64,000 nt of DNA from Ramlibacter pinisoli (GTDB taxonomy: Bacteria; Pseudomonadota; Gammaproteobacteria; Burkholderiales; Burkholderiaceae_C). A program made the position numbers and the translations under genes. The DNA is taken from positions 496,001-560,000 of the forward strand of contig NZ_WSEL01000003.1 of NCBI RefSeq assembly GCF_009758015.1, written 5' to 3'. Numbering within the stretch: position 1 is the first letter of the stretch; every line of letters starts with the position of its first letter. The notes under the pieces were generated by a model. The model was given only the letters and a program-made list of their open reading frames with translations. It was not told where the DNA came from and ran no database searches. This document shows, one piece after another, positions 49,058 to 57,809 of the stretch.

Positions 49058-50833
<1,776 letters not shown>

Positions 50834-50917
50834 CGCGGCCCAGGCACCGGCGCCGGCCGGCCGCTCCCCACCGCATCGGCATGGCCCGGGGCTTGCCGGA
50901 TCGCTTGGTTTTCCCAC

Positions 50918-50947
50918 TTGCGCGGCGCCGCGCCCCCACCCTATATT
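50918..50947 (+). promoter_or_regulatory. Possible promoter of the cytochrome-flavoprotein-Sox-like operon
   Basis: TTGCGC (50918-50923), 18-base spacer, TATATT (50942-50947), 41 bases before the cytochrome start. TATATT is the only AT-rich stretch in the 155-base space; the -35 is a weak match. Confidence 0.4.
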
Positions 50948-50988
50948 GAGCGACCGATCAACACGAACGGCCGCCCCACCCTCCCTGC

Positions 50989-51306
50989 ATGAGCCTGCCC
51001 CGCCCTCGCTTCGCCGCGTCCCTTGCCGCGCTCGTGCTCGCGGCGGCGCCGGCGTGGGGCTCCCCGCCGCTGCAGGTGGCCACCCTCGCCGCCACCTGTG
51101 CCAACTGCCACGGCACCCAGGGCCGCGCGGTCGCCGGCTCGCCGCTGCCCACGCTGGCCGGCATGCCCAGCGACGCGATGCTGGCGCAGTTGCGCGCCTT
51201 CCGCGCCGGCACGCGGCCCTCGACCATCATGGCCCAGCTGAGCAAGGGCTACTCCGAGGCCCAGTTGGAGCAGGTGGCCGAGTACTTCGCCCGCCAGCCG
51301 CGCTGA
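50989..51306 (+). CDS. Small monohaem c-type cytochrome (FccA/SoxE-like)
   Basis: A 105-residue periplasmic cytochrome with a signal peptide ending AAAPAWG, one haem motif CANCH at residues 38-42 and a likely methionine ligand in TLAGMPSDAML. Placed 8 bases before the FccB-like gene, it fits the small cytochrome subunit or electron acceptor of a flavocytochrome c sulfide dehydrogenase; it could also take electrons from the molybdenum hydroxylase further down. First gene of the eight-gene operon. Confidence 0.88.
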   Translation: MSLPRPRFAASLAALVLAAAPAWGSPPLQVATLAATCANCHGTQGRAVAGSPLPTLAGMPSDAMLAQLRAFRAGTRPSTIMAQLSKGYSEAQLEQVAEYFARQPR

Positions 51307-51314
51307 ACCGGACG

Positions 51315-52580
51315 ATGCAGCGCCGCACCCTGCTCCAGGCATCCGGCGCCGCCACGCTCTCGGCCCTGGCGGGTTGCGCCAGCCCGGTCGGCACGCGCCC
51401 GCGCGTGGTGGTGGTCGGCGGCGGCTACGGCGGGGCCACGGCCGCCAAGTACCTGCGCCTGTTCTCCGACGGCCGGGTGGACGTGACCGTCGTCGAGCCG
51501 CAGGCCGACCTGGTCTCGTGCCCGCTGTCCAACCTGGTGCTGGGCGGCAGCGCCACGCTGGCCCAGCTCACCACGCCGCTCGCCGGCCTGGCCGCGCGCC
51601 ACGGCGTGGCGCTGGCGCAGGACACGGTGCGCAGCATCGACCCGGCGCGCAAGACCGTCACGCTGGCGGGCGGGCGCAGCCTGGCCTACGACAAGCTGGT
51701 CGTCTCGCCGGGCGTGGACCTGCAGTTCGACCGCATCGGCGGCCTGCAGGCCGCGCACGCCGCCGGCGCCGTGCTGCAGGCGTGGAAGGCCGGCCCCGAG
51801 ACCCTGGCCCTGCGCCGGCAGCTGGAAGCGATGCCCGACGGCGGCGTGTACGCCATCGCCATCCCCGAGCAACCCTATCGCTGCCCGCCCGGCCCCTACG
51901 AGCGGGCCTGCCAGGTCGCGTGGTACTTCCGGCAGGCCAAGCCGCGCAGCAAAGTGCTGGTGCTGGACGCCAACCCGGACGTGGTCTCCAAGCCGGCCCT
52001 GTTCCGGCGCGCCTGGGCCGAGCTGTACCCCGGCCTGGTCGAGTACCGGCCCAACCACAAGGTGACCGCGGTGGACGCACGCGCGGGCCTGCTCAAGGCC
52101 GACCTGCAGGACGACGTGCGCGCCGACGTGCTCAACGTCCTGCCGCCGATGCGCGCCGGCCTGGTCGCCGTGCAGGCCGGCCTGGCCAACCAGGCGGGCA
52201 ACCGCTGGTGCGGAGTCGACTACCTCGGCTTCGAATCGACCGCGGCGGCCGACGTGCACGTGCTCGGCGATGCCATCCTGGCTGCCTCGGGCATGCCCAA
52301 GAGTGCGCACATGGCGAACAACCACGCCAAGGTGGCGGCCGCCGTCATCGTCTCGCGCCTGCTGGGCTGGGAGGCGCCGGTCGCGCCGCTGCTCACCAAC
52401 ACCTGCTACAGCTTCGTGGACGACAAGCGCGTGATCCACGTGGCCAGCGTGCACGAGTACGCCGACCGGACCTGGCGCATCGTCGCCGGCTCGGGCGGCG
52501 TGTCGCCGGCGCCCACCGACCTGGAAGGCGTCTACGCCTGGAACTGGGCCCGCACCATGTGGGCCGACGCACTGGCCTGA
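51315..52580 (+). CDS. FccB/SoxF-like flavocytochrome c sulfide dehydrogenase flavoprotein subunit
   Basis: A 421-residue FAD flavoprotein with a twin-arginine leader (MQRRTLLQASGAATLSALAG). The FAD motif VVVVGGGYGG is at 31-40. The sulfide-quinone reductase/FccB-family cysteines are conserved: C190 in EQPYRCPPGPYERAC and C364 in TNTCYSFVDD correspond to the active disulfide, and VSCPLSNLVLGG is also present. The family oxidises sulfide or protein-bound sulfur to polysulfide and passes electrons to cytochrome c. The start codon has a weak ribosome-binding site. Confidence 0.9.
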   Translation: MQRRTLLQASGAATLSALAGCASPVGTRPRVVVVGGGYGGATAAKYLRLFSDGRVDVTVVEPQADLVSCPLSNLVLGGSATLAQLTTPLAGLAARHGVALAQDTVRSIDPARKTVTLAGGRSLAYDKLVVSPGVDLQFDRIGGLQAAHAAGAVLQAWKAGPETLALRRQLEAMPDGGVYAIAIPEQPYRCPPGPYERACQVAWYFRQAKPRSKVLVLDANPDVVSKPALFRRAWAELYPGLVEYRPNHKVTAVDARAGLLKADLQDDVRADVLNVLPPMRAGLVAVQAGLANQAGNRWCGVDYLGFESTAAADVHVLGDAILAASGMPKSAHMANNHAKVAAAVIVSRLLGWEAPVAPLLTNTCYSFVDDKRVIHVASVHEYADRTWRIVAGSGGVSPAPTDLEGVYAWNWARTMWADALA

Positions 52581-52613
52581 GCCCCCGCCGATCCAACCAA
52601 GGAGACCAAGAGC

Positions 52614-53114
52614 ATGGCAAGAATCCACGTCAACGGCGCCCCGCGCGAGTTCGAGGCCGAGCCGGACACCCCGCTGCTCTGGGTGCTGCGCGAGCAACTG
52701 GGCCTGACCGGCACCAAGTACGGCTGCGGCATCGCGGCCTGCGGCGCCTGCACCGTGCACCTGGACGGCGTGCCCACCCGCAGCTGCGTGCGGCCGGTCT
52801 CCACCATCGGCCCGGACGAGAAGATCGTCACCATCGAGGGCCTGTCGCCGGACGGCTCGCACCCGGTGCAGAAGGCCTGGGTGGCGCTGGACGTGCCGCA
52901 GTGCGGCTACTGCCAGTGCGGCATGGTGATGGCGGCCACGGCGCTGCTCAAGGCCAAGCCCAACCCAACCGATGCCGACATCGACGACGCGATGAGCAAC
53001 ATCTGCCGCTGCGGCACCTACAACCGGGTGCGCGCGGCCATCAAGTCCGTCGCCCAGGGCAGCACCCGCAACGCCGGCCTGCAGATCCAGCACCGCGACG
53101 GGAGCGTGGCATGA
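52614..53114 (+). CDS. [2Fe-2S] subunit of a molybdenum hydroxylase (IorA-like)
   Basis: A 166-residue two-cluster iron-sulfur subunit of the xanthine-dehydrogenase/isoquinoline 1-oxidoreductase family. The plant-type cluster cysteines are C38, C43, C46 and C58; the second cluster is C97, C100, C131 and C133 ([18 protein letters not shown]). There is no leader of its own; export would be by piggyback on the Tat-bearing large subunit. A good AAGGAGA box precedes the ATG, and its stop overlaps the large-subunit start. Confidence 0.92.
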
Positions 53115-55270
53115 AGCGCCGCGGCTTTCTCCAGGTCACCGCGTCGGCCGGCCTCGCCATCGGCTTCCACGTGCCGTTCGGTGCGCTGGCGCAGGACGCC
53201 ACGCCCGAGATCAACGCCTGGGTAGTGGTCAAGCCCGACGACACCGTGGTGATCCGCATCGCCCGCTCCGAGATGGGCCAGGGCAGCCTCACCGGGCTGG
53301 CGCAGCTGGTCGCCGAAGAACTCGACTGCAACTGGGCCAGGGTGACCACCGAGTACCCGACGCCGGGCCAGAACCTCGCGCGCAACCGCGCCTGGGGCAA
53401 TTTCTCCACCGGCGGCAGCCGCGGCATCCGCGAGTCGCACGACTACGTCCGCAAGGGCGGCGCCGCCGCCCGGCTGATGCTGGTGCAGGCGGCCGCGGCC
53501 GAGTGGAAGGTCCCGGTGGCCGAATGCCGCGCTGCCGGCAGCGTCATCACCCACGTGCCCAGTGGCCGCACCCTCAGCTACGGCAAGGTCGCCGCCGCCG
53601 CCGGCAAGCTGCAGCCGCCCACCGAGGTGCCGCTGAAGGACCCGAAGGACTGGAAGATCGCCGGCAAGCGGCTGGCGCGGCTCGACACCGTCGACAAGGT
53701 CACAGGCCGCCAGGTGTACGGCGCCGACCTCAAGCTGCCCGGCATGCTGAACGCGGCGATCAAGGACTGCCCCGTGTTCGGCGGCAAGGTCAAGAGCTTC
53801 AACGCCGCGGCCGTTGCGGGCCGCCCGGGCGTGAAGAAGGTGCTGCAGGTCGGCGACAGCGCCGTCGCCGTGGTGGCCGACACCTGGTGGCGCGCCAAGA
53901 CCGCGCTCGACGCGCTGCCGATCGAGTGGGACGAGGGCCCGAATGCCAAGGCGTCCAGTGCCACGGTGGCGCAGGTGCTGAAGGCCGGCCTCGACGCCCC
54001 GGAGGCGGCGGTCGGCAACAGCAACGGCGACGCCAGGGCGGCGCTGGCCTCGGCGGCGCGCCGCATCGAGGCGGTGTACGCCTACCCGCACCAGAACCAC
54101 GCGACCATGGAACCGATGAACTCCACGGCCCGCTGGACGCCCGAGCGCTGCGAGGTCTGGACCCCGACCCAGAACGGCGAGGCGGCGCTGGCCGCGACGT
54201 CGGAGGCGGCCGGCCTGCCGGCGCGCCAGTGCGAGGTCTACAAGATCCACCTGGGCGGCGGCTTCGGCCGGCGCGGCGCCGTGCACGACTGGGTGCGGCA
54301 GGCGGTGCTGATCGCCAGGGAGATGCCCGGCACCCCGGTCAAGCTGCTGTGGACGCGCGAGGAGGACATGACGCACGGGCGCTACCACCCCGTCACGCAG
54401 TGCAAGCTGACGGCGGGACTGGATGCGCAGGGCAACGTCACCGCGCTGCACATGCGCATCTCGGGCCAGTCCATCGTCGCCGGCATCTCGCCGCAGTCCA
54501 TCCAGGGCGGCCGCGACCCTGTGGTGTTCCAGGGCCTGAACGCGCCCGGCCCGGAGGCATCGATCGGCTACGGCTTCCCCCACCTGCTGATCGACCATGC
54601 GATGCGCAACCCGCCGGTGCCGCCGGGTTTCTGGCGCGGCGTGAACCTGAACCAGAACACGATCTACCTCGAGTGCTTCATCGACGAGATCGCCGCCGCC
54701 ACGAAGCAGGATCCGCTGGCCCTGCGCCGCAAGCTCATGGCCCAGCATCCCAAGCACCTGGCCGTGCTCAACGCCGTCGCGCAGAAGGTCGGCTGGGACA
54801 CGCCGGCGCCCGACATCGGCGGGCAGAAGGTGTTCCGCGGACTGGCGCAGACCATGGGCTTCGGCAGCTACGTCGCCGCCTGCGCCGAGGTCTCGGTCAA
54901 CCCCGAGGGCGAGCTCAAGGTGCACCGCATCGTGGCCGCCACCGACCCTGGCCATGCCGTCAACCCGCAGCAGATCGAGGCCCAGGTCGAGGGCTCGTTC
55001 GCCTACGGCCTGTCGGCGGCCCTGTTCGGCGAATGCACGCTCAAGGACGGACGCATCGAGCAGACCAACTTCAGCGACTACCCGGTGCTCCACATGCGCC
55101 ACATGCCGAGGGTGGAGACGGTCATCGTGCCCTCGGGCGGCTTCTGGGGCGGCGTGGGCGAGCCCACCATCGCGGTCGCGGCGCCGGCGGTGCTGAACGC
55201 CGTCTACGCGGCCACCGGCAAGCGCATCCGTGACCTGCCGCTGAAGCACCACAGCCTCAAGCAAGCCTGA
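53111..55270 (+). CDS. Molybdopterin-binding subunit of a molybdenum hydroxylase (IorB-like), Tat-exported
   Basis: A 719-residue large subunit of the xanthine dehydrogenase family with a twin-arginine leader ([19 protein letters not shown]), so periplasmic. Cofactor segments are [17 protein letters not shown] near the N-terminus, [19 protein letters not shown] and the C-terminal [21 protein letters not shown], whose glutamate is the expected catalytic base. No separate FAD subunit is encoded, as in IorAB, so electrons should leave to a cytochrome. The stop and the soxX start overlap (TGATG), tying this enzyme to the Sox-like genes. The substrate is unknown. Confidence 0.92.
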
Positions 55271-55701
55271 TGCACCGGGGCCTGGCCACGGCCGCGCTAT
55301 TGATGGCCGGCGCCGCGGCGGCGCAGGACCTGGTGCCCTATACCGTGAGCGGCGACGGCATCGAGCGGCCGCTGGCGGCGCCCGGCGATCCGGCGCGCGG
55401 CCGGGCCATCGCCGCCAGCCGCCAGCAGGGGCTGTGCCTGCTGTGCCATCCGGCGCCGATCCCCGAGGAACGCTTCCAGGGCAACCTGGCACCGGATCTG
55501 GCGGGCGTCGGCGCGCGCTACACCACGGCGCAACTGAGGCTGCGCGTCGTCGACGCCCGGCGTGTCACCCCGGCCAGCTTCATGCCGGCCTTCCACGGCA
55601 CCGCCAACCTCTCGCGCGTCGGCGCCGCCTGGCAGGGCAAACCCGTGCTCAGCGCGCAGCAGGTGGAGGACGTCGTCGCGTGGTTGTCCACCTTGCGCTA
55701 G
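55270..55701 (+). CDS. soxX: SoxX-like monohaem cytochrome c
   Basis: A 143-residue cytochrome with a signal peptide (ALLMAGAAAAQ), a CLLCH haem motif at 56-60 in GLCLLCHPAPIPEERFQGNLAPDLAGVGARY, a pattern characteristic of SoxX, and a distal methionine M105 in ASFMPAF. SoxX pairs with SoxA to make the cytochrome that links a sulfur substrate to the SoxY cysteine. Its start overlaps the molybdenum hydroxylase stop. Confidence 0.9.
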   Translation: MHRGLATAALLMAGAAAAQDLVPYTVSGDGIERPLAAPGDPARGRAIAASRQQGLCLLCHPAPIPEERFQGNLAPDLAGVGARYTTAQLRLRVVDARRVTPASFMPAFHGTANLSRVGAAWQGKPVLSAQQVEDVVAWLSTLR

Positions 55702-55711
55702 GCTCGCCCGC

Positions 55712-56182
55712 ATGACGCCTTCCACCTCGTACGGCCGCCGCGCGCTGCTGGGCGCGGGCGCGGCCCTGGTGCTGGTGCGTCCCGCCCTCGCCCAGCCGCT
55801 CGGCAACGCCGCCGGCAAGCAGATGGAGGAGGCCGTCGCCGCCTTCGCGCAGGGGCGACCGGTACGCCCGGGCCGCGTGACGTTCGACATCGCCTCGCTG
55901 GTCGACAACGGCAACGTGGTGCCCGTCACCGTCTCGGTCGACAGCCCGATGACGCCCGCCGACCATGTCGTGCAGCTGGCCATCTTCAACGACCGCAACC
56001 CGCAGCGCGACGTGGCCGTGTTCACGCTGGGCCCGCGCGCCGGCAAGGCCGTGGTGGCCACCCGCATCCGGTTGGCCACCAGCCAGCAGCTGGTCGCCGT
56101 CGCACGCCTGTCCGACGGCAGCCTGTGGAGCCACACGGTGGACGTGATCGTGGCGCTGGCGGCCTGCATCGAGGGCTCGTGA
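55712..56182 (+). CDS. SoxY-like sulfur carrier subunit with AACIEGS C-terminus
   Basis: A 156-residue SoxY homologue with a twin-arginine leader (YGRRALLGAGAALVLVRPALA). The immunoglobulin-like core is clear (VTFDIASLVDNGNVVPVTVSVDSPM, HVVQLAIFNDRNPQRDVAVFTLGP, ATSQQLVAVARLSDGSLW). Canonical SoxY ends GGCGG, with the carrier cysteine on a flexible glycine arm; here the end is ALAACIEGS, keeping a cysteine (C152) but not the glycines. I recall a SoxY-related 'AACIE arm' family being named in protein-family collections; its function is uncharacterised to my knowledge. Confidence 0.88.
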   Translation: MTPSTSYGRRALLGAGAALVLVRPALAQPLGNAAGKQMEEAVAAFAQGRPVRPGRVTFDIASLVDNGNVVPVTVSVDSPMTPADHVVQLAIFNDRNPQRDVAVFTLGPRAGKAVVATRIRLATSQQLVAVARLSDGSLWSHTVDVIVALAACIEGS

Positions 56183-56252
56183 CCATGGCGCCCGCGTCCC
56201 GCGCTTCGTCGTCCCGCCGCCCCGCGCAAGGTCGGCCCACCGGAGGCCCGGC

Positions 56253-56573
56253 ATGGCCCGCGTCCTGATCCAGGTACCCGCCAGCGCTCGCCGCGGCGAG
56301 GTGATCGAGCTGCGCGCCAGCATCGCCCACGTGATGGAGACCGGCTACCGCGCCGGCGCCGACGGGCAGGCGGTGGCGCGCGACATCATCCGGCGCTTCA
56401 CCTGCCGCTACGCCGGCGAAGTCGTCTTCGCGGCCGAGCTCCATCCGGCGATCGCGGCCAATCCCTACCTGGCCTTCCACGCCGTCGCCACCGAGAGCGG
56501 CACGCTGGAATTCGAGTGGCAGGGTGACAACGGCTTCGCGCAGGTCGAACGGCGCGAGCTGCAGGTCACGTGA
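56253..56573 (+). CDS. soxZ: SoxZ-like thiosulfate oxidation carrier partner
   Basis: A 106-residue SoxZ homologue without a leader, as is normal since SoxZ is exported in complex with SoxY. RVLIQVPASARRGEVIELRASIAHVMETGYR, FAAELHPAIAANPYLAFHAVATESGTLEFEW and the DNG turn are diagnostic. A strong GGAGG box precedes the ATG. A 70-base gap separates it from the SoxY-like gene and its stop overlaps soxA (GTGA). Confidence 0.92.
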   Translation: MARVLIQVPASARRGEVIELRASIAHVMETGYRAGADGQAVARDIIRRFTCRYAGEVVFAAELHPAIAANPYLAFHAVATESGTLEFEWQGDNGFAQVERRELQVT

Positions 56574-57343
56574 GGCTGCATCTGGCCGGCATCGCCCTCG
56601 CCGCGCTGGTCGGGTGCACGGCCGCACCGCCAGGGCCGGCGCCTGCCGCGCAGCGCTCCGGCTTCCTCGACATGGGCGTGGCGGTGCAGGAGATGCAGCA
56701 AGACGACGCCGCCAATCCCGCCATGCTGTGGGTGCAGGACGGCCGCCAGCTGTGGTTGCGCCCCGAGGGCCCGCGCTCGGCGTCCTGCACCTCCTGCCAC
56801 GGCGACGTGACGTCGCTGCGGGGCGTGGCGGCGCGCTACCCGGCCTGGGACGAGCCCCTGCGACGGCCGGTGGACCTGGCCACCCGCATCAACCTGTGCC
56901 GCGAACGCCACCAGGGCGCCCTGCCCTGGCCCGCCGAACACCAGGACCTGCTGGCGCTGGAGGCGCTGGTGGGCCTGCAGTCGCGCGGCCTGCCGATCAC
57001 GCCGCCGGCCGACGAGCGGTTGCAGCCCTTCCAGCGCCGCGGCGCCGCCCTGTTCCAGCAGCGCATCGGCCAGCTCGACCTGTCGTGCGCGACCTGCCAC
57101 GACCAGCTGGCCGGCGGCAAGCTGGCCGGCGCCCCGATCACGCAGGGCCAAGCGACCGGCTATCCCATCTACCGCCTCGAGTGGCAGGCGCCCGGCTCGC
57201 TGGCACGCCGCATCCGCAACTGCATGACCGGCGTGCGCGCCGAGCCATTGGCCGCCGGCAGCGTGGAGATGGTGGAACTCGAACTGCACCTGGCCGCGCG
57301 GGCCATGGGGATGGCGGTGGAAACGCCGGCGGTGCGGCCCTAG
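56570..57343 (+). CDS. soxA: SoxA-like dihaem cytochrome c
   Basis: A 257-residue SoxA homologue starting with GTG, with a signal whose cleavage context (LVGC) suggests a lipoprotein. Two haem motifs are CTSCH (73-77) and CATCH (173-177). C110 in INLCRERHQG and C218 in RIRNCMTGVRAEP are at the positions of the distal haem ligand and the catalytic cysteine persulfide of SoxA. Thus SoxXA looks catalytically complete. Last gene of the operon; no soxB, soxC or soxD follows. Confidence 0.92.
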   Translation: MRLHLAGIALAALVGCTAAPPGPAPAAQRSGFLDMGVAVQEMQQDDAANPAMLWVQDGRQLWLRPEGPRSASCTSCHGDVTSLRGVAARYPAWDEPLRRPVDLATRINLCRERHQGALPWPAEHQDLLALEALVGLQSRGLPITPPADERLQPFQRRGAALFQQRIGQLDLSCATCHDQLAGGKLAGAPITQGQATGYPIYRLEWQAPGSLARRIRNCMTGVRAEPLAAGSVEMVELELHLAARAMGMAVETPAVRP

Positions 57344-57359
57344 CGCGGCCGCGTCGGGC

Positions 57360-57809
57360 CTACTGCAGCGGCCCCTTCAGGGCCTTGGGCACCGGCAGCG
57401 GCAGCACGCCGATGCCTTCATCCAGCAGGGCTTCGGTTTCCTCGCGCGAGGCCTGGCCGCGGATGCCGCGCTCCTCGGTCTCGCCGTAGTGGATGCGGCG
57501 GGCCTCCTCGGCGAAGCGCTCGCCGACGTCCTCGGTGTTGGCCATCACGTGGCGCACCATCTTCAGCCAGGCCGCCTGCATGGCTGCCTCGGGCATCGTG
57601 GCCACCTCCTGGCGCGGCTGGGCTTCAGGCTGGGGCTGGGCTGCGCCGAGGTTCAGGCGCGGGGCCGACGGCATCTTGGCGATGGCGGTGTCGCCGCAGT
57701 AGGGGCACTCGACCAGGCCGCGCCCGAGTTGGTCCTGGAAGTCGTCTTCCGAGCCGAACCAGCCTTCGAAGGCATGGAGGTGCGTGCACTGGAGGTTGAG
57801 GACTTTCAT
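57360..57809 (-). CDS. DUF1178 family protein
   Basis: A 149-residue conserved protein with an N-terminal zinc-ribbon-like start (LQCTHLHAFEGWFGS then VECPYCGDTAIAKMPSAPRL) and a C-terminal helical part (MQAAWLKMVRHVMANTEDVGERFAEEARRIHYGETEERGIRGQASREE). The first knuckle retains only one cysteine. The function is unknown. It is commonly found beside the Nudix gene and the nuo operon in this lineage (general knowledge). Confidence 0.9.
   Translation of the reverse strand: MKVLNLQCTHLHAFEGWFGSEDDFQDQLGRGLVECPYCGDTAIAKMPSAPRLNLGAAQPQPEAQPRQEVATMPEAAMQAAWLKMVRHVMANTEDVGERFAEEARRIHYGETEERGIRGQASREETEALLDEGIGVLPLPVPKALKGPLQ

What the first reader, a model, noticed from the sequence alone, without database searches (positions are those of the whole stretch)
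50989..57343. Eight-gene periplasmic operon joining FccAB, a molybdenum hydroxylase and SoxXYZA without SoxB or SoxCD
All eight genes run in one direction with stop/start overlaps tying the molybdenum hydroxylase large subunit to SoxX and SoxZ to SoxA. Sox pathway enzymes normally include SoxB to hydrolyse the carrier-bound sulfonate; it is absent here, and a Tat-exported IorAB-type hydroxylase occupies the centre. SoxXA keeps its haems and the likely persulfide cysteine C218, and FccB keeps its disulfide pair. I infer that a substrate is loaded on the SoxYZ-like carrier and oxidised by the hydroxylase and/or FccB, with cytochromes taking electrons. This would be a distinct carrier-bound oxidation system, possibly for an organosulfur compound.
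Basis: partly seen in the sequence, partly recalled or inferred. Interest (0 to 1): 0.82.

Follow-up and report, generated by a model that had tools for sequence, protein, structure and literature searches.

The report
Molybdenum enzyme coupled to sulfur carrier
Many soil, plant and freshwater bacteria carry a periplasmic gene set that pairs a molybdenum aldehyde-oxidase-like enzyme with its own version of the Sox sulfur carrier and does not include the usual Sox hydrolase, so it probably oxidises a carbon-and-sulfur compound in a way the textbook Sox pathway does not.

Summary
The eight genes are real and correctly placed. The genome has no SoxB or SoxC over curated cut-offs and only this SoxY. 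The linkage is not chance. Among the 80 best IorB relatives kept from named genomes, 73 have iorAB plus soxYZ and 71 all six iorAB-soxXYZA genes; five of the seven misses are contig ends. The set recurs on annotated alphaproteobacterial plasmids. fccAB joins it at four different positions. Of 64 loci picked by SoxY, 37 of 41 with an AAC-type tail have IorAB alongside, against 0 of 12 with a GGC tail. With the tail left out of the tree, every IorAB-linked SoxY falls in one clade (81 of its 89 members; support 98). The module occurs with and without SoxB. IorB's nearest solved relative is a molybdenum aldehyde dehydrogenase. I read it as a dedicated carrier-bound oxidation system; the adduct, the substrate and the order of steps are inferred. 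Seven searches of one open-access library showed no description of it in what they listed.

The parts
50989..51306 (+). fccA-like small monohaem cytochrome c (105 aa, signal peptide by eye, CANCH)
   Evidence: ORF; Pfam Cytochrom_C 28.3 bits; homologues next to fccB in many relatives
51315..52580 (+). fccB, flavocytochrome c sulfide dehydrogenase flavoprotein, Tat-type signal by eye (MQRRTLLQ)
   Evidence: Pfam FCSD_central 145.6 and FCSD-flav_bind 74.7 bits; PDB 5n1t 321 bits; C190 and C364 in 18 of 18 relatives
52614..53114 (+). iorA, two-[2Fe-2S] small subunit of a molybdenum hydroxylase (no signal peptide by eye)
   Evidence: Pfam Fer2 and Fer2_2; cluster cysteines conserved in 98-99 of 99 rows
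53111..55270 (+). iorB, molybdenum-binding large subunit, Tat signal by eye (KRRGFLQ), catalytic-type Glu684 in GVGEP
   Evidence: Pfam MoCoBD_1/2; closest solved relative 8gy3_C by sequence (249.7 bits) and by fold (TM 0.81); E684 in 77 of 77
55270..55701 (+). soxX, monohaem cytochrome c; start overlaps iorB stop by 1 nt
   Evidence: TIGR04485 77.5 bits over cut-off 61; CxxCH and Met105 in 65 of 65
55712..56182 (+). soxY-like carrier with AACIEGS arm, Tat-type signal by eye, carrier Cys152
   Evidence: TIGR04487 195.4 bits over cut-off 172; in the AlphaFold model Cys152 lies on the lower-confidence C-terminal tail after the last strand, which ends at 148; fold = SoxY of SoxYZ 2oxg
56253..56573 (+). 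soxZ partner subunit of the carrier
   Evidence: Pfam SoxZ 86.6 bits; TIGR04490 71.8 bits, just under cut-off 76
56570..57343 (+). soxA dihaem cytochrome c with Cys218 and Arg216, Arg223, Arg244; GTG start overlaps soxZ stop by 4 nt
   Evidence: TIGR04484 208.7 bits over cut-off 110; PDB 1h31 155 bits; residues invariant in 84 of 84

Best explanation
This is a dedicated periplasmic carrier-bound oxidation module (core: IorAB + AACIE-type SoxYZ + SoxXA; accessory: FccAB), distinct from the canonical Sox pathway. SHOWN: the gene set, its conservation in Alpha- and Betaproteobacteria, one SoxY clade with its own arm type, and the conserved catalytic-type residues. INFERRED mechanism: (1) SoxXA oxidatively couples a small reduced-sulfur compound R-S(-) to SoxY Cys152, as it does with thiosulfate in Sox; (2) the arm presents R to IorAB, which hydroxylates or oxidises its carbon (aldehyde or activated C-H) with water and passes electrons through two [2Fe-2S] clusters to c-type cytochromes, in place of SoxB hydrolysis; (3) product leaves, and sulfur left as a persulfide on SoxY is oxidised or unloaded by FccAB where present. 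The substrate is most likely an organic sulfur compound rather than thiosulfate; its identity is unknown.
For: Linkage: iorAB+soxYZ in 73 of 80 IorB-selected named loci, five of the seven misses being contig ends. Tail and linkage go together: AAC tail 37 of 41 with IorAB, GGC tail 0 of 12; one SoxY clade with tail columns removed, support 98. Different fccAB positions in different lineages suggest repeated functional association rather than one frozen operon. SoxA over cut-off in 24 of 24 genomes checked, including ones whose IorAB-SoxYZ locus has no soxXA (caveat under evidence against). SoxY Cys 115 of 115, SoxA Cys218 84 of 84, IorB Glu684 77 of 77. The module coexists with full Sox (SoxC in 21 of 32 SoxB+ genomes with a TIGR04487-type SoxY over 100 bits), so a second carrier suggests a different job. 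IorB is closest to a molybdenum aldehyde dehydrogenase.
Against: No adduct, activity, expression or mutant data. Stand-alone IorAB relatives (about 54-69% identical) without SoxYZ exist (L190, L191, L193, L195-L203), so IorAB can work without a local carrier. SoxXA is not always local: 13 of 40 order-level loci have iorAB-soxYZ without soxXA. The SoxA found elsewhere in those genomes sits, where I looked, in separate SoxXYZA sets with their own SoxY, so it may serve those; and SoxA's background frequency in the order was not measured, nor was IorAB checked in three of the 24 genomes (G114, G153, G254). Some SoxY-clade members lack adjacent IorAB (8 of 89; two are contig ends). Nine loci of a diverged group (IorB about 50% identical) have GCG/ACGG/SCG/ACGD tails, so the AAC tail is not strictly required. 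fccB is missing in most betaproteobacterial loci.
Confidence: 0.43

Rival explanations
1. Two parallel activities on the products of one parent compound: IorAB oxidises a free aldehyde, while SoxXYZA and FccAB handle the reduced sulfur released with it (for example methanethiol giving formaldehyde and sulfide). They are co-transcribed, but IorAB never touches the carrier.
For: IorB's closest solved relative is an aldehyde dehydrogenase. An SBP56 (methanethiol-oxidase family, function recalled) gene lies 4-7 kb from the module in two genomes of one family, and one exists far away in the window's genome. IorAB can stand alone.
Against: SBP56 above 500 bits is in 3 of 40 genomes picked for the module-type SoxY and 4 of 40 comparison genomes (6 and 6 at any reported score), so it is no general partner. 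The SoxY arm type and clade co-inherit with IorAB, which plain co-regulation does not require.
Confidence: 0.2
2. IorAB replaces SoxB and/or SoxCD in ordinary thiosulfate or sulfane oxidation.
For: SoxXA and SoxYZ are intact and SoxB and SoxC are absent from this genome by curated cut-off; 25 of 37 module-bearing isolate genomes lack SoxB; the window's set includes FccAB.
Against: In the order-level sample most genomes over the TIGR04487 cut-off also have SoxB (22 of 25), and 21 of 32 SoxB+ genomes with this SoxY type have SoxC, so nothing is being replaced there. Xanthine-oxidase-family chemistry acts on carbon (general knowledge).
Confidence: 0.12
3. The Sox and Fcc proteins serve the molybdenum enzyme: they deliver or repair the sulfido ligand on its Mo centre in the periplasm.
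For: Xanthine-oxidase-family enzymes need a Mo=S ligand (general knowledge). SoxYZ-like carriers also accompany PQQ alcohol dehydrogenases, where a maturation role has been suggested (PMC12997753 section 15, read).
Against: In L224/L225 the same gene run encodes an XdhC-MobA protein, TauE, MoaA, MoaC and MoeA (Pfam on L225; gene run), i.e. the usual cytoplasmic sulfuration route. A number of IorAB relatives have no SoxYZ alongside.
Confidence: 0.12
4. The SoxY thiol captures an aldehyde as a hemithioacetal, which IorAB oxidises to a thioester or acid, as a protein version of thiol-dependent formaldehyde oxidation.
For: IorB resembles aldehyde dehydrogenases; fused SoxYZ-like carriers with a SoxH-like hydrolase accompany PQQ alcohol dehydrogenases; 13 of 40 order-level loci have iorAB-soxYZ without local soxXA.
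Against: It needs neither SoxXA (in the same gene set in 71 of 80 named loci) nor FccAB. No flanking gene family, such as a thioester hydrolase, is general to the loci (families not all identified).
Confidence: 0.11
5. Chance neighbourhood of unrelated genes.
For: Flanking genes are variable.
Against: Conservation in two classes and in rearranged orders.
Confidence: 0.02

Closest known systems
Canonical Sox pathway (SoxXYZABCD, Paracoccus pantotrophus type)
   Same: SoxXA and SoxYZ homologues with conserved haem motifs, SoxA cysteine and arginines, and carrier cysteine
   Different: No SoxB or SoxC in this genome; carrier arm AACIE instead of GGCGG; distinct SoxY clade; partnership with a molybdenum hydroxylase
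NCBIfam TIGR04487 'SoxY-related AACIE arm protein'
   Same: The window SoxY is over its cut-off (195.4 against 172); two annotated plasmids use this name
   Different: A family name only; the two searches for the name listed no paper on it
Molybdenum aldehyde dehydrogenase of Gluconobacter oxydans (PDB 8GY3) and other IorAB-type enzymes
   Same: IorB is a full-length relative by sequence and fold; GEP glutamate and 2Fe-2S cysteines kept
   Different: No dedicated multihaem cytochrome subunit in the operon (that 8GY3's enzyme has one is recalled); Sox carrier and FccAB instead
Flavocytochrome c sulfide dehydrogenase FccAB
   Same: FccB domains and cysteine pair
   Different: In one run with IorAB and SoxXYZA; FccA here has one CxxCH
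Quinoprotein-dehydrogenase-associated SoxYZ-like carrier (TIGR04557, ped/xox clusters)
   Same: A SoxYZ-like carrier tied to a periplasmic carbon-oxidising dehydrogenase (PMC12997753 section 15)
   Different: That one is a fused SoxYZ listed with a SoxH-like hydrolase; no SoxXA is named in the passages I saw; the window SoxY scores 50.1 against its cut-off of 140
SAR324 flavocytochrome c next to SoxYZ without other sox genes (PMC4782131, passages read)
   Same: Fcc beside SoxYZ without further sox subunits in those bins; isoquinoline 1-oxidoreductase also reported in SAR324 genomes
   Different: The passages do not report them as one cluster; sequences not compared here

Membership tests
Canonical Sox thiosulfate-oxidation pathway | SoxXA with conserved haem motifs and SoxA active-site Cys | tested here: met
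Canonical Sox thiosulfate-oxidation pathway | SoxY with GGCGG carrier arm | tested here: not met
   AACIEGS; TIGR04488 85.0 bits under cut-off 125
Canonical Sox thiosulfate-oxidation pathway | SoxB in the genome | tested here: not met
   best 43.5 bits, cut-off 550
Canonical Sox thiosulfate-oxidation pathway | SoxCD (full version) | tested here: not met
   SoxC best 206.9 bits, cut-off 420; SoxD not searched
Canonical Sox thiosulfate-oxidation pathway | Thiosulfate-dependent cytochrome c reduction | not testable with these tools
   needs protein
TIGR04487 SoxY-related AACIE arm protein | Score over curated cut-off | tested here: met
   195.4 against 172
Xanthine-oxidase-family molybdenum hydroxylase, IorAB/aldehyde dehydrogenase type | MoCo-binding domains and two [2Fe-2S] clusters | tested here: met
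Xanthine-oxidase-family molybdenum hydroxylase, IorAB/aldehyde dehydrogenase type | Catalytic-type glutamate in GEP motif | tested here: met
   E684 in 77 of 77, aligned with GLGEP of 8gy3; its role is recalled
Xanthine-oxidase-family molybdenum hydroxylase, IorAB/aldehyde dehydrogenase type | Aldehyde or N-heterocycle oxidation activity | not testable with these tools
   needs protein
Flavocytochrome c sulfide dehydrogenase | FCSD domains and redox cysteine pair in FccB | tested here: met
Quinoprotein-associated SoxYZ-like carrier (TIGR04557) | Score over curated cut-off | tested here: not met
   SoxY 50.1 and SoxZ 33.6 against 140

The most novel reading that the evidence does not exclude
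A carrier-protein-bound organosulfur oxidation pathway: SoxXA loads an organic thiol (or another reduced sulfur compound with an oxidisable carbon) on an AACIE-type SoxYZ arm, and a xanthine-oxidase-family molybdenum hydroxylase oxidises the carbon while it is bound. It would be the first such enzyme known to work on a protein-tethered substrate (first to my knowledge; not searched for) and a second kind of Sox cycle, independent of SoxB and widespread in Alpha- and Betaproteobacteria.
Probability: 0.34. Interest if true: 0.9.

Novelty: new variant of a known kind. Interest (0 to 1): 0.76.

Why it matters
SoxXA and SoxYZ genes are commonly read as thiosulfate oxidation in genome surveys. Here a large, old branch of SoxY is tied to a molybdenum hydroxylase instead of SoxB, in genomes with and without the normal pathway, so some 'incomplete Sox' calls may be a different metabolism. 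It also gives an unexplained NCBIfam family (AACIE arm) a partner enzyme and a directly testable question: what sits on the arm cysteine?

Tried and rejected
IorAB as a stand-in for SoxCD: rejected as a general rule. SoxC is present in 21 of 32 SoxB+ genomes with a TIGR04487-type SoxY, 1 of 10 SoxB- ones and 10 of 38 SoxB+ comparison genomes (80 genomes, groups set by me).

Methanethiol oxidase as the missing upstream enzyme: above 500 bits in 3 of 40 and 4 of 40 genomes, so rejected as a general partner, although it lies near the module in two genomes of one family.

A hidden ninth component: clustering of flanking ORFs showed none general to the loci. The most widespread flanking families reach 15 of 40 loci (looks like a Bug-type binding protein by eye), 19 of 80 (looks like a dihydrolipoamide dehydrogenase, in related genera) and 7 of 32 (an ABC-type ATPase); I did not pursue them. 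In 17 stand-alone IorAB loci the most widespread flanking family reaches 6.

Strict rule 'AAC tail only with IorAB': not exact. Nine loci of a diverged group have IorAB with GCG/ACGG/SCG/ACGD tails. The Fisher test (P = 7e-9) ignores relatedness of the loci, and the loci were mostly the top-scoring matches; the clade is the better evidence. That tree is FastTree, midpoint-rooted, with many weak inner branches.

Literature: ten searches. Those aimed at the gene combination are 20, 21, 27, 28, 50, 51, 59. Searches were seen in full (1, 3 and 1 papers); of the others I saw only the top of the list (20 of 121, 15 of 63, 20 of 83, 12 of 199), ranked with papers holding more of the terms first. Only open-licence PMC papers are held, so the absence of a description is weak evidence.

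Promoter scan of 50700-57500 found no promoter-like site and terminator-like sites at chance level.


Full report
WHAT IS THERE. Eight co-directional genes, fccA-fccB-iorA-iorB-soxX-soxY-soxZ-soxA, occupy window 50989-57343. Three junctions overlap (iorA/iorB 4 nt, iorB/soxX 1 nt, soxZ/soxA 4 nt). Pfam and NCBIfam confirm the families. The SoxY belongs to NCBIfam TIGR04487, 'SoxY-related AACIE arm protein' (195.4 bits, cut-off 172), and fails the model for true GGCGG SoxY (85.0 bits, cut-off 125). By eye IorB, SoxY and FccB start with twin-arginine signals, and IorA has none, as expected if it is exported with IorB (inference). The genome, 99.98% complete, has this one SoxY and no SoxB or SoxC over curated cut-offs.

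IS IT MORE THAN CHANCE. Searching named GTDB genomes with IorB gave at least 598 pattern matches; the best 80 (IorB 74-85% identical) were kept. iorAB with soxYZ is present in 73 of 80 and all six iorAB-soxXYZA genes in 71 of 80 (per-gene counts by tblastn: iorA 79, soxX 75, soxY 74, soxZ 74, soxA 72, fccB 22). Of the seven misses, five are contig ends (L095, L131, L132, L145, L150) and two are real (L086, L154); L148 and L155 lack only soxA, L155 at a contig end. Hosts by record title include Ramlibacter, Polaromonas, Variovorax, Pseudorhodoferax, Noviherbaspirillum, Massilia, Duganella, Pseudoduganella, Methylibium and Rhizobacter.

THE SEARCH FROM THE CARRIER SIDE. A search of 399 genomes of the order with TIGR04487 matched 205 at E <= 1e-3 and 25 over the cut-off. 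I took 40 loci, nearly all top-scoring. Of the 40, 34 have iorAB plus soxYZ and 21 all six genes; 13 have iorAB-soxYZ without soxXA; the other six are L045 (iorB cut by the contig end) and L057, L065, L069, L074, L077 (no iorAB). A phylum-wide search of 299 genomes gave 11 over cut-off. Of 20 further loci, nine end in AAC-type tails and all nine carry iorAB, fccB and soxXYZA together, while eleven end in GGCGG and none has iorAB. Eight of those GGCGG loci were re-scanned for SoxB and seven have it alongside.

CONTINGENCY, CLASS AND PLASMIDS. Over 64 loci (the 40, the 20 and four plasmids), AAC tails have IorAB in 37 of 41, GGC tails in 0 of 12 and other tails in 10 of 11. A search in the class of G641 (289 genomes, 16 over cut-off; I take it for Alphaproteobacteria from its closeness to the plasmid hits, not told by the tool) led to 20 more loci: 14 have all six genes and nine also fccB; four are cut by contig ends; L274 has an AAC tail and fccAB-soxXYZA without iorAB; L280 is GGCGG without iorAB. 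Annotated alphaproteobacterial plasmids of Methylobacterium sp. NMS14P and Roseomonas marmotae carry all eight genes, as does Neorhizobium galegae, whose iorB is in two ORFs. A fourth plasmid locus (Indioceanicola) has a GGCGG SoxY and no iorAB. Counts of 'eight' rest on fccB; a separate fccA was not called in four of the nine loci L217-L225.

FCCAB. The pair sits before iorAB in the window, on the opposite strand upstream in two Rhizobacter loci (L136, L139), between iorB and soxX in 19 alphaproteobacterial-type loci and in L044, and after soxA in 20 named betaproteobacterial loci (Massilia, Duganella, Pseudoduganella, Noviherbaspirillum), L043, L276 and the Roseomonas plasmid. I read recurrent association in different positions as functional linkage (inference).

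ONE CLADE. A SoxY tree of 119 sequences with the arm removed puts every IorAB-linked SoxY in one clade of 89 (support 98; 81 linked), apart from 30 others, none linked. The set mixes loci picked on SoxY, on IorB and on SoxA. Of the eight unlinked members, two are contig ends (L263, L265). For three more (L065, L074, L242) an IorAB relative lies elsewhere in the same genome (L200, L202, L203). The IorB tree (136 rows) shows linked enzymes at several depths, with unlinked relatives among them. So the association is old, and adjacency is sometimes lost.

RELATION TO NORMAL SOX. SoxB is over cut-off in 184 of 399 order genomes. By the printed lists it is present in 22 of the 25 genomes over the TIGR04487 cut-off; the window genome, G169 and G039 lack it. 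In 50 genomes of the named set SoxB is present in 23: 12 of 37 isolates and 11 of 13 MAGs (two of the MAGs, L086 and L154, are the unlinked cases). SoxC shows no replacement pattern. The module therefore exists with or without SoxB; where both exist, a second carrier with another arm suggests another substrate (inference). SoxA is over cut-off in 24 of 24 genomes checked. I read this as SoxXA being part of the system, but it is not proof: in several genomes with soxXA-less loci the SoxA sits in a separate SoxXYZA set (L237-L241, L243, L244, L246, L247 with GGC-type tails where a SoxY was called; L069, L074 and L242 with AC(L)D tails), three of the 24 genomes (G114, G153, G254) were picked on SoxY alone, and the background frequency of SoxA was not measured.

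ACTIVE-SITE CONSERVATION. SoxA Cys218, Arg216, Arg223, Arg244 and both CxxCH motifs: 84 of 84. SoxX CxxCH and Met105: 65 of 65. SoxY arm cysteine: 87 of 87 (115 of 115 in the wider set). FccB C190 and C364: 18 of 18. IorB Glu684: 77 of 77. In the SoxY model (mean pLDDT 82) Cys152 lies on the lower-confidence tail after the last strand, and the fold is that of SoxYZ. IorB's best solved relative by sequence and by fold is the Gluconobacter membrane-bound aldehyde dehydrogenase 8GY3 (249.7 bits; TM 0.81; model pLDDT 81).

MECHANISM. In the consensus Sox model SoxXA conjugates thiosulfate to the SoxY cysteine, SoxB removes the sulfonate and SoxCD oxidises the sulfane (PMC5336275, Introduction read; that paper also notes that none of the steps had been directly demonstrated). 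Here SoxXA and the carrier are intact, SoxB is not part of the set, and a carbon-oxidising molybdenum enzyme takes the partner position. The simplest reading is that SoxXA loads a sulfur compound and IorAB oxidises its carbon moiety on the arm, with FccAB dealing with leftover persulfide sulfur. All three steps are inference. In L224/L225 the gene run continues into a regulator, an XdhC-MobA protein, TauE and Moco genes: XdhC there argues against SoxYZ sulfurating the Mo centre, and TauE (sulfite exporter family) fits a sulfur product.

WHAT IS KNOWN. Seven searches of one open-access library aimed at this combination showed no description in what they listed (limits under Tried and rejected). 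Papers consulted: PMC12997753 (section 15 and passages; fused SoxYZ-like carriers with PQQ dehydrogenases), PMC4782131 (passages; SAR324 Fcc beside SoxYZ), PMC7188995 (one passage; IorAB subunits in a Pseudomonas putida proteome table), PMC13391558, PMC6382920 and PMC11237559 (passages, nothing on this combination), PMC5336275 (Introduction and passages).

VERDICT.

Noticed in passing
L224 and L225 (downstream of soxA): The iorAB-fccAB-soxXYZA run continues into a HTH regulator, an XdhC-MobA fusion, TauE, MoaA, MoaC and MoeA, with small ORFs between that look like MoaD, MoaE and MoaB (Pfam run on L225 only, the small ORFs not scanned).
   Followed up: partly
L237-L241, L243, L244, L246, L247: Another Sox-like set: SoxXYZA with GGC-type tails (no SoxY called in L239) and no SoxB in the stretch taken; five of these genomes (G039, G065, G016, G075, G148) have no SoxB match at E <= 1e-60.
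   Followed up: no
L055, L059, L060, L063, L066, L067, L071, L072, L073: Diverged IorAB-SoxYZ pairs (IorB about 50% identical) with GCG/ACGG/SCG/ACGD tails and no local soxXA.
   Followed up: partly
L218:13692-15122 and L281:7874-9292: An SBP56 (methanethiol-oxidase family) gene 4-7 kb from the module in two genomes of one family; the window's genome also has one, far away (L282).
   Followed up: partly
L257:7695-9876: iorB on the Neorhizobium galegae plasmid is in two ORFs and has no CDS in the table shown, while the other genes of the set are called.
   Followed up: no
L057:7509-7607: A 33-residue stretch matching iorB directly upstream of a soxXYZA set that has no other iorB match in the stretch taken.
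   Followed up: no
L077: A same-family genome with fccAB, a second fccB-like gene and SoxYZ ending in SGCGM, without IorAB in the stretch taken.
   Followed up: no
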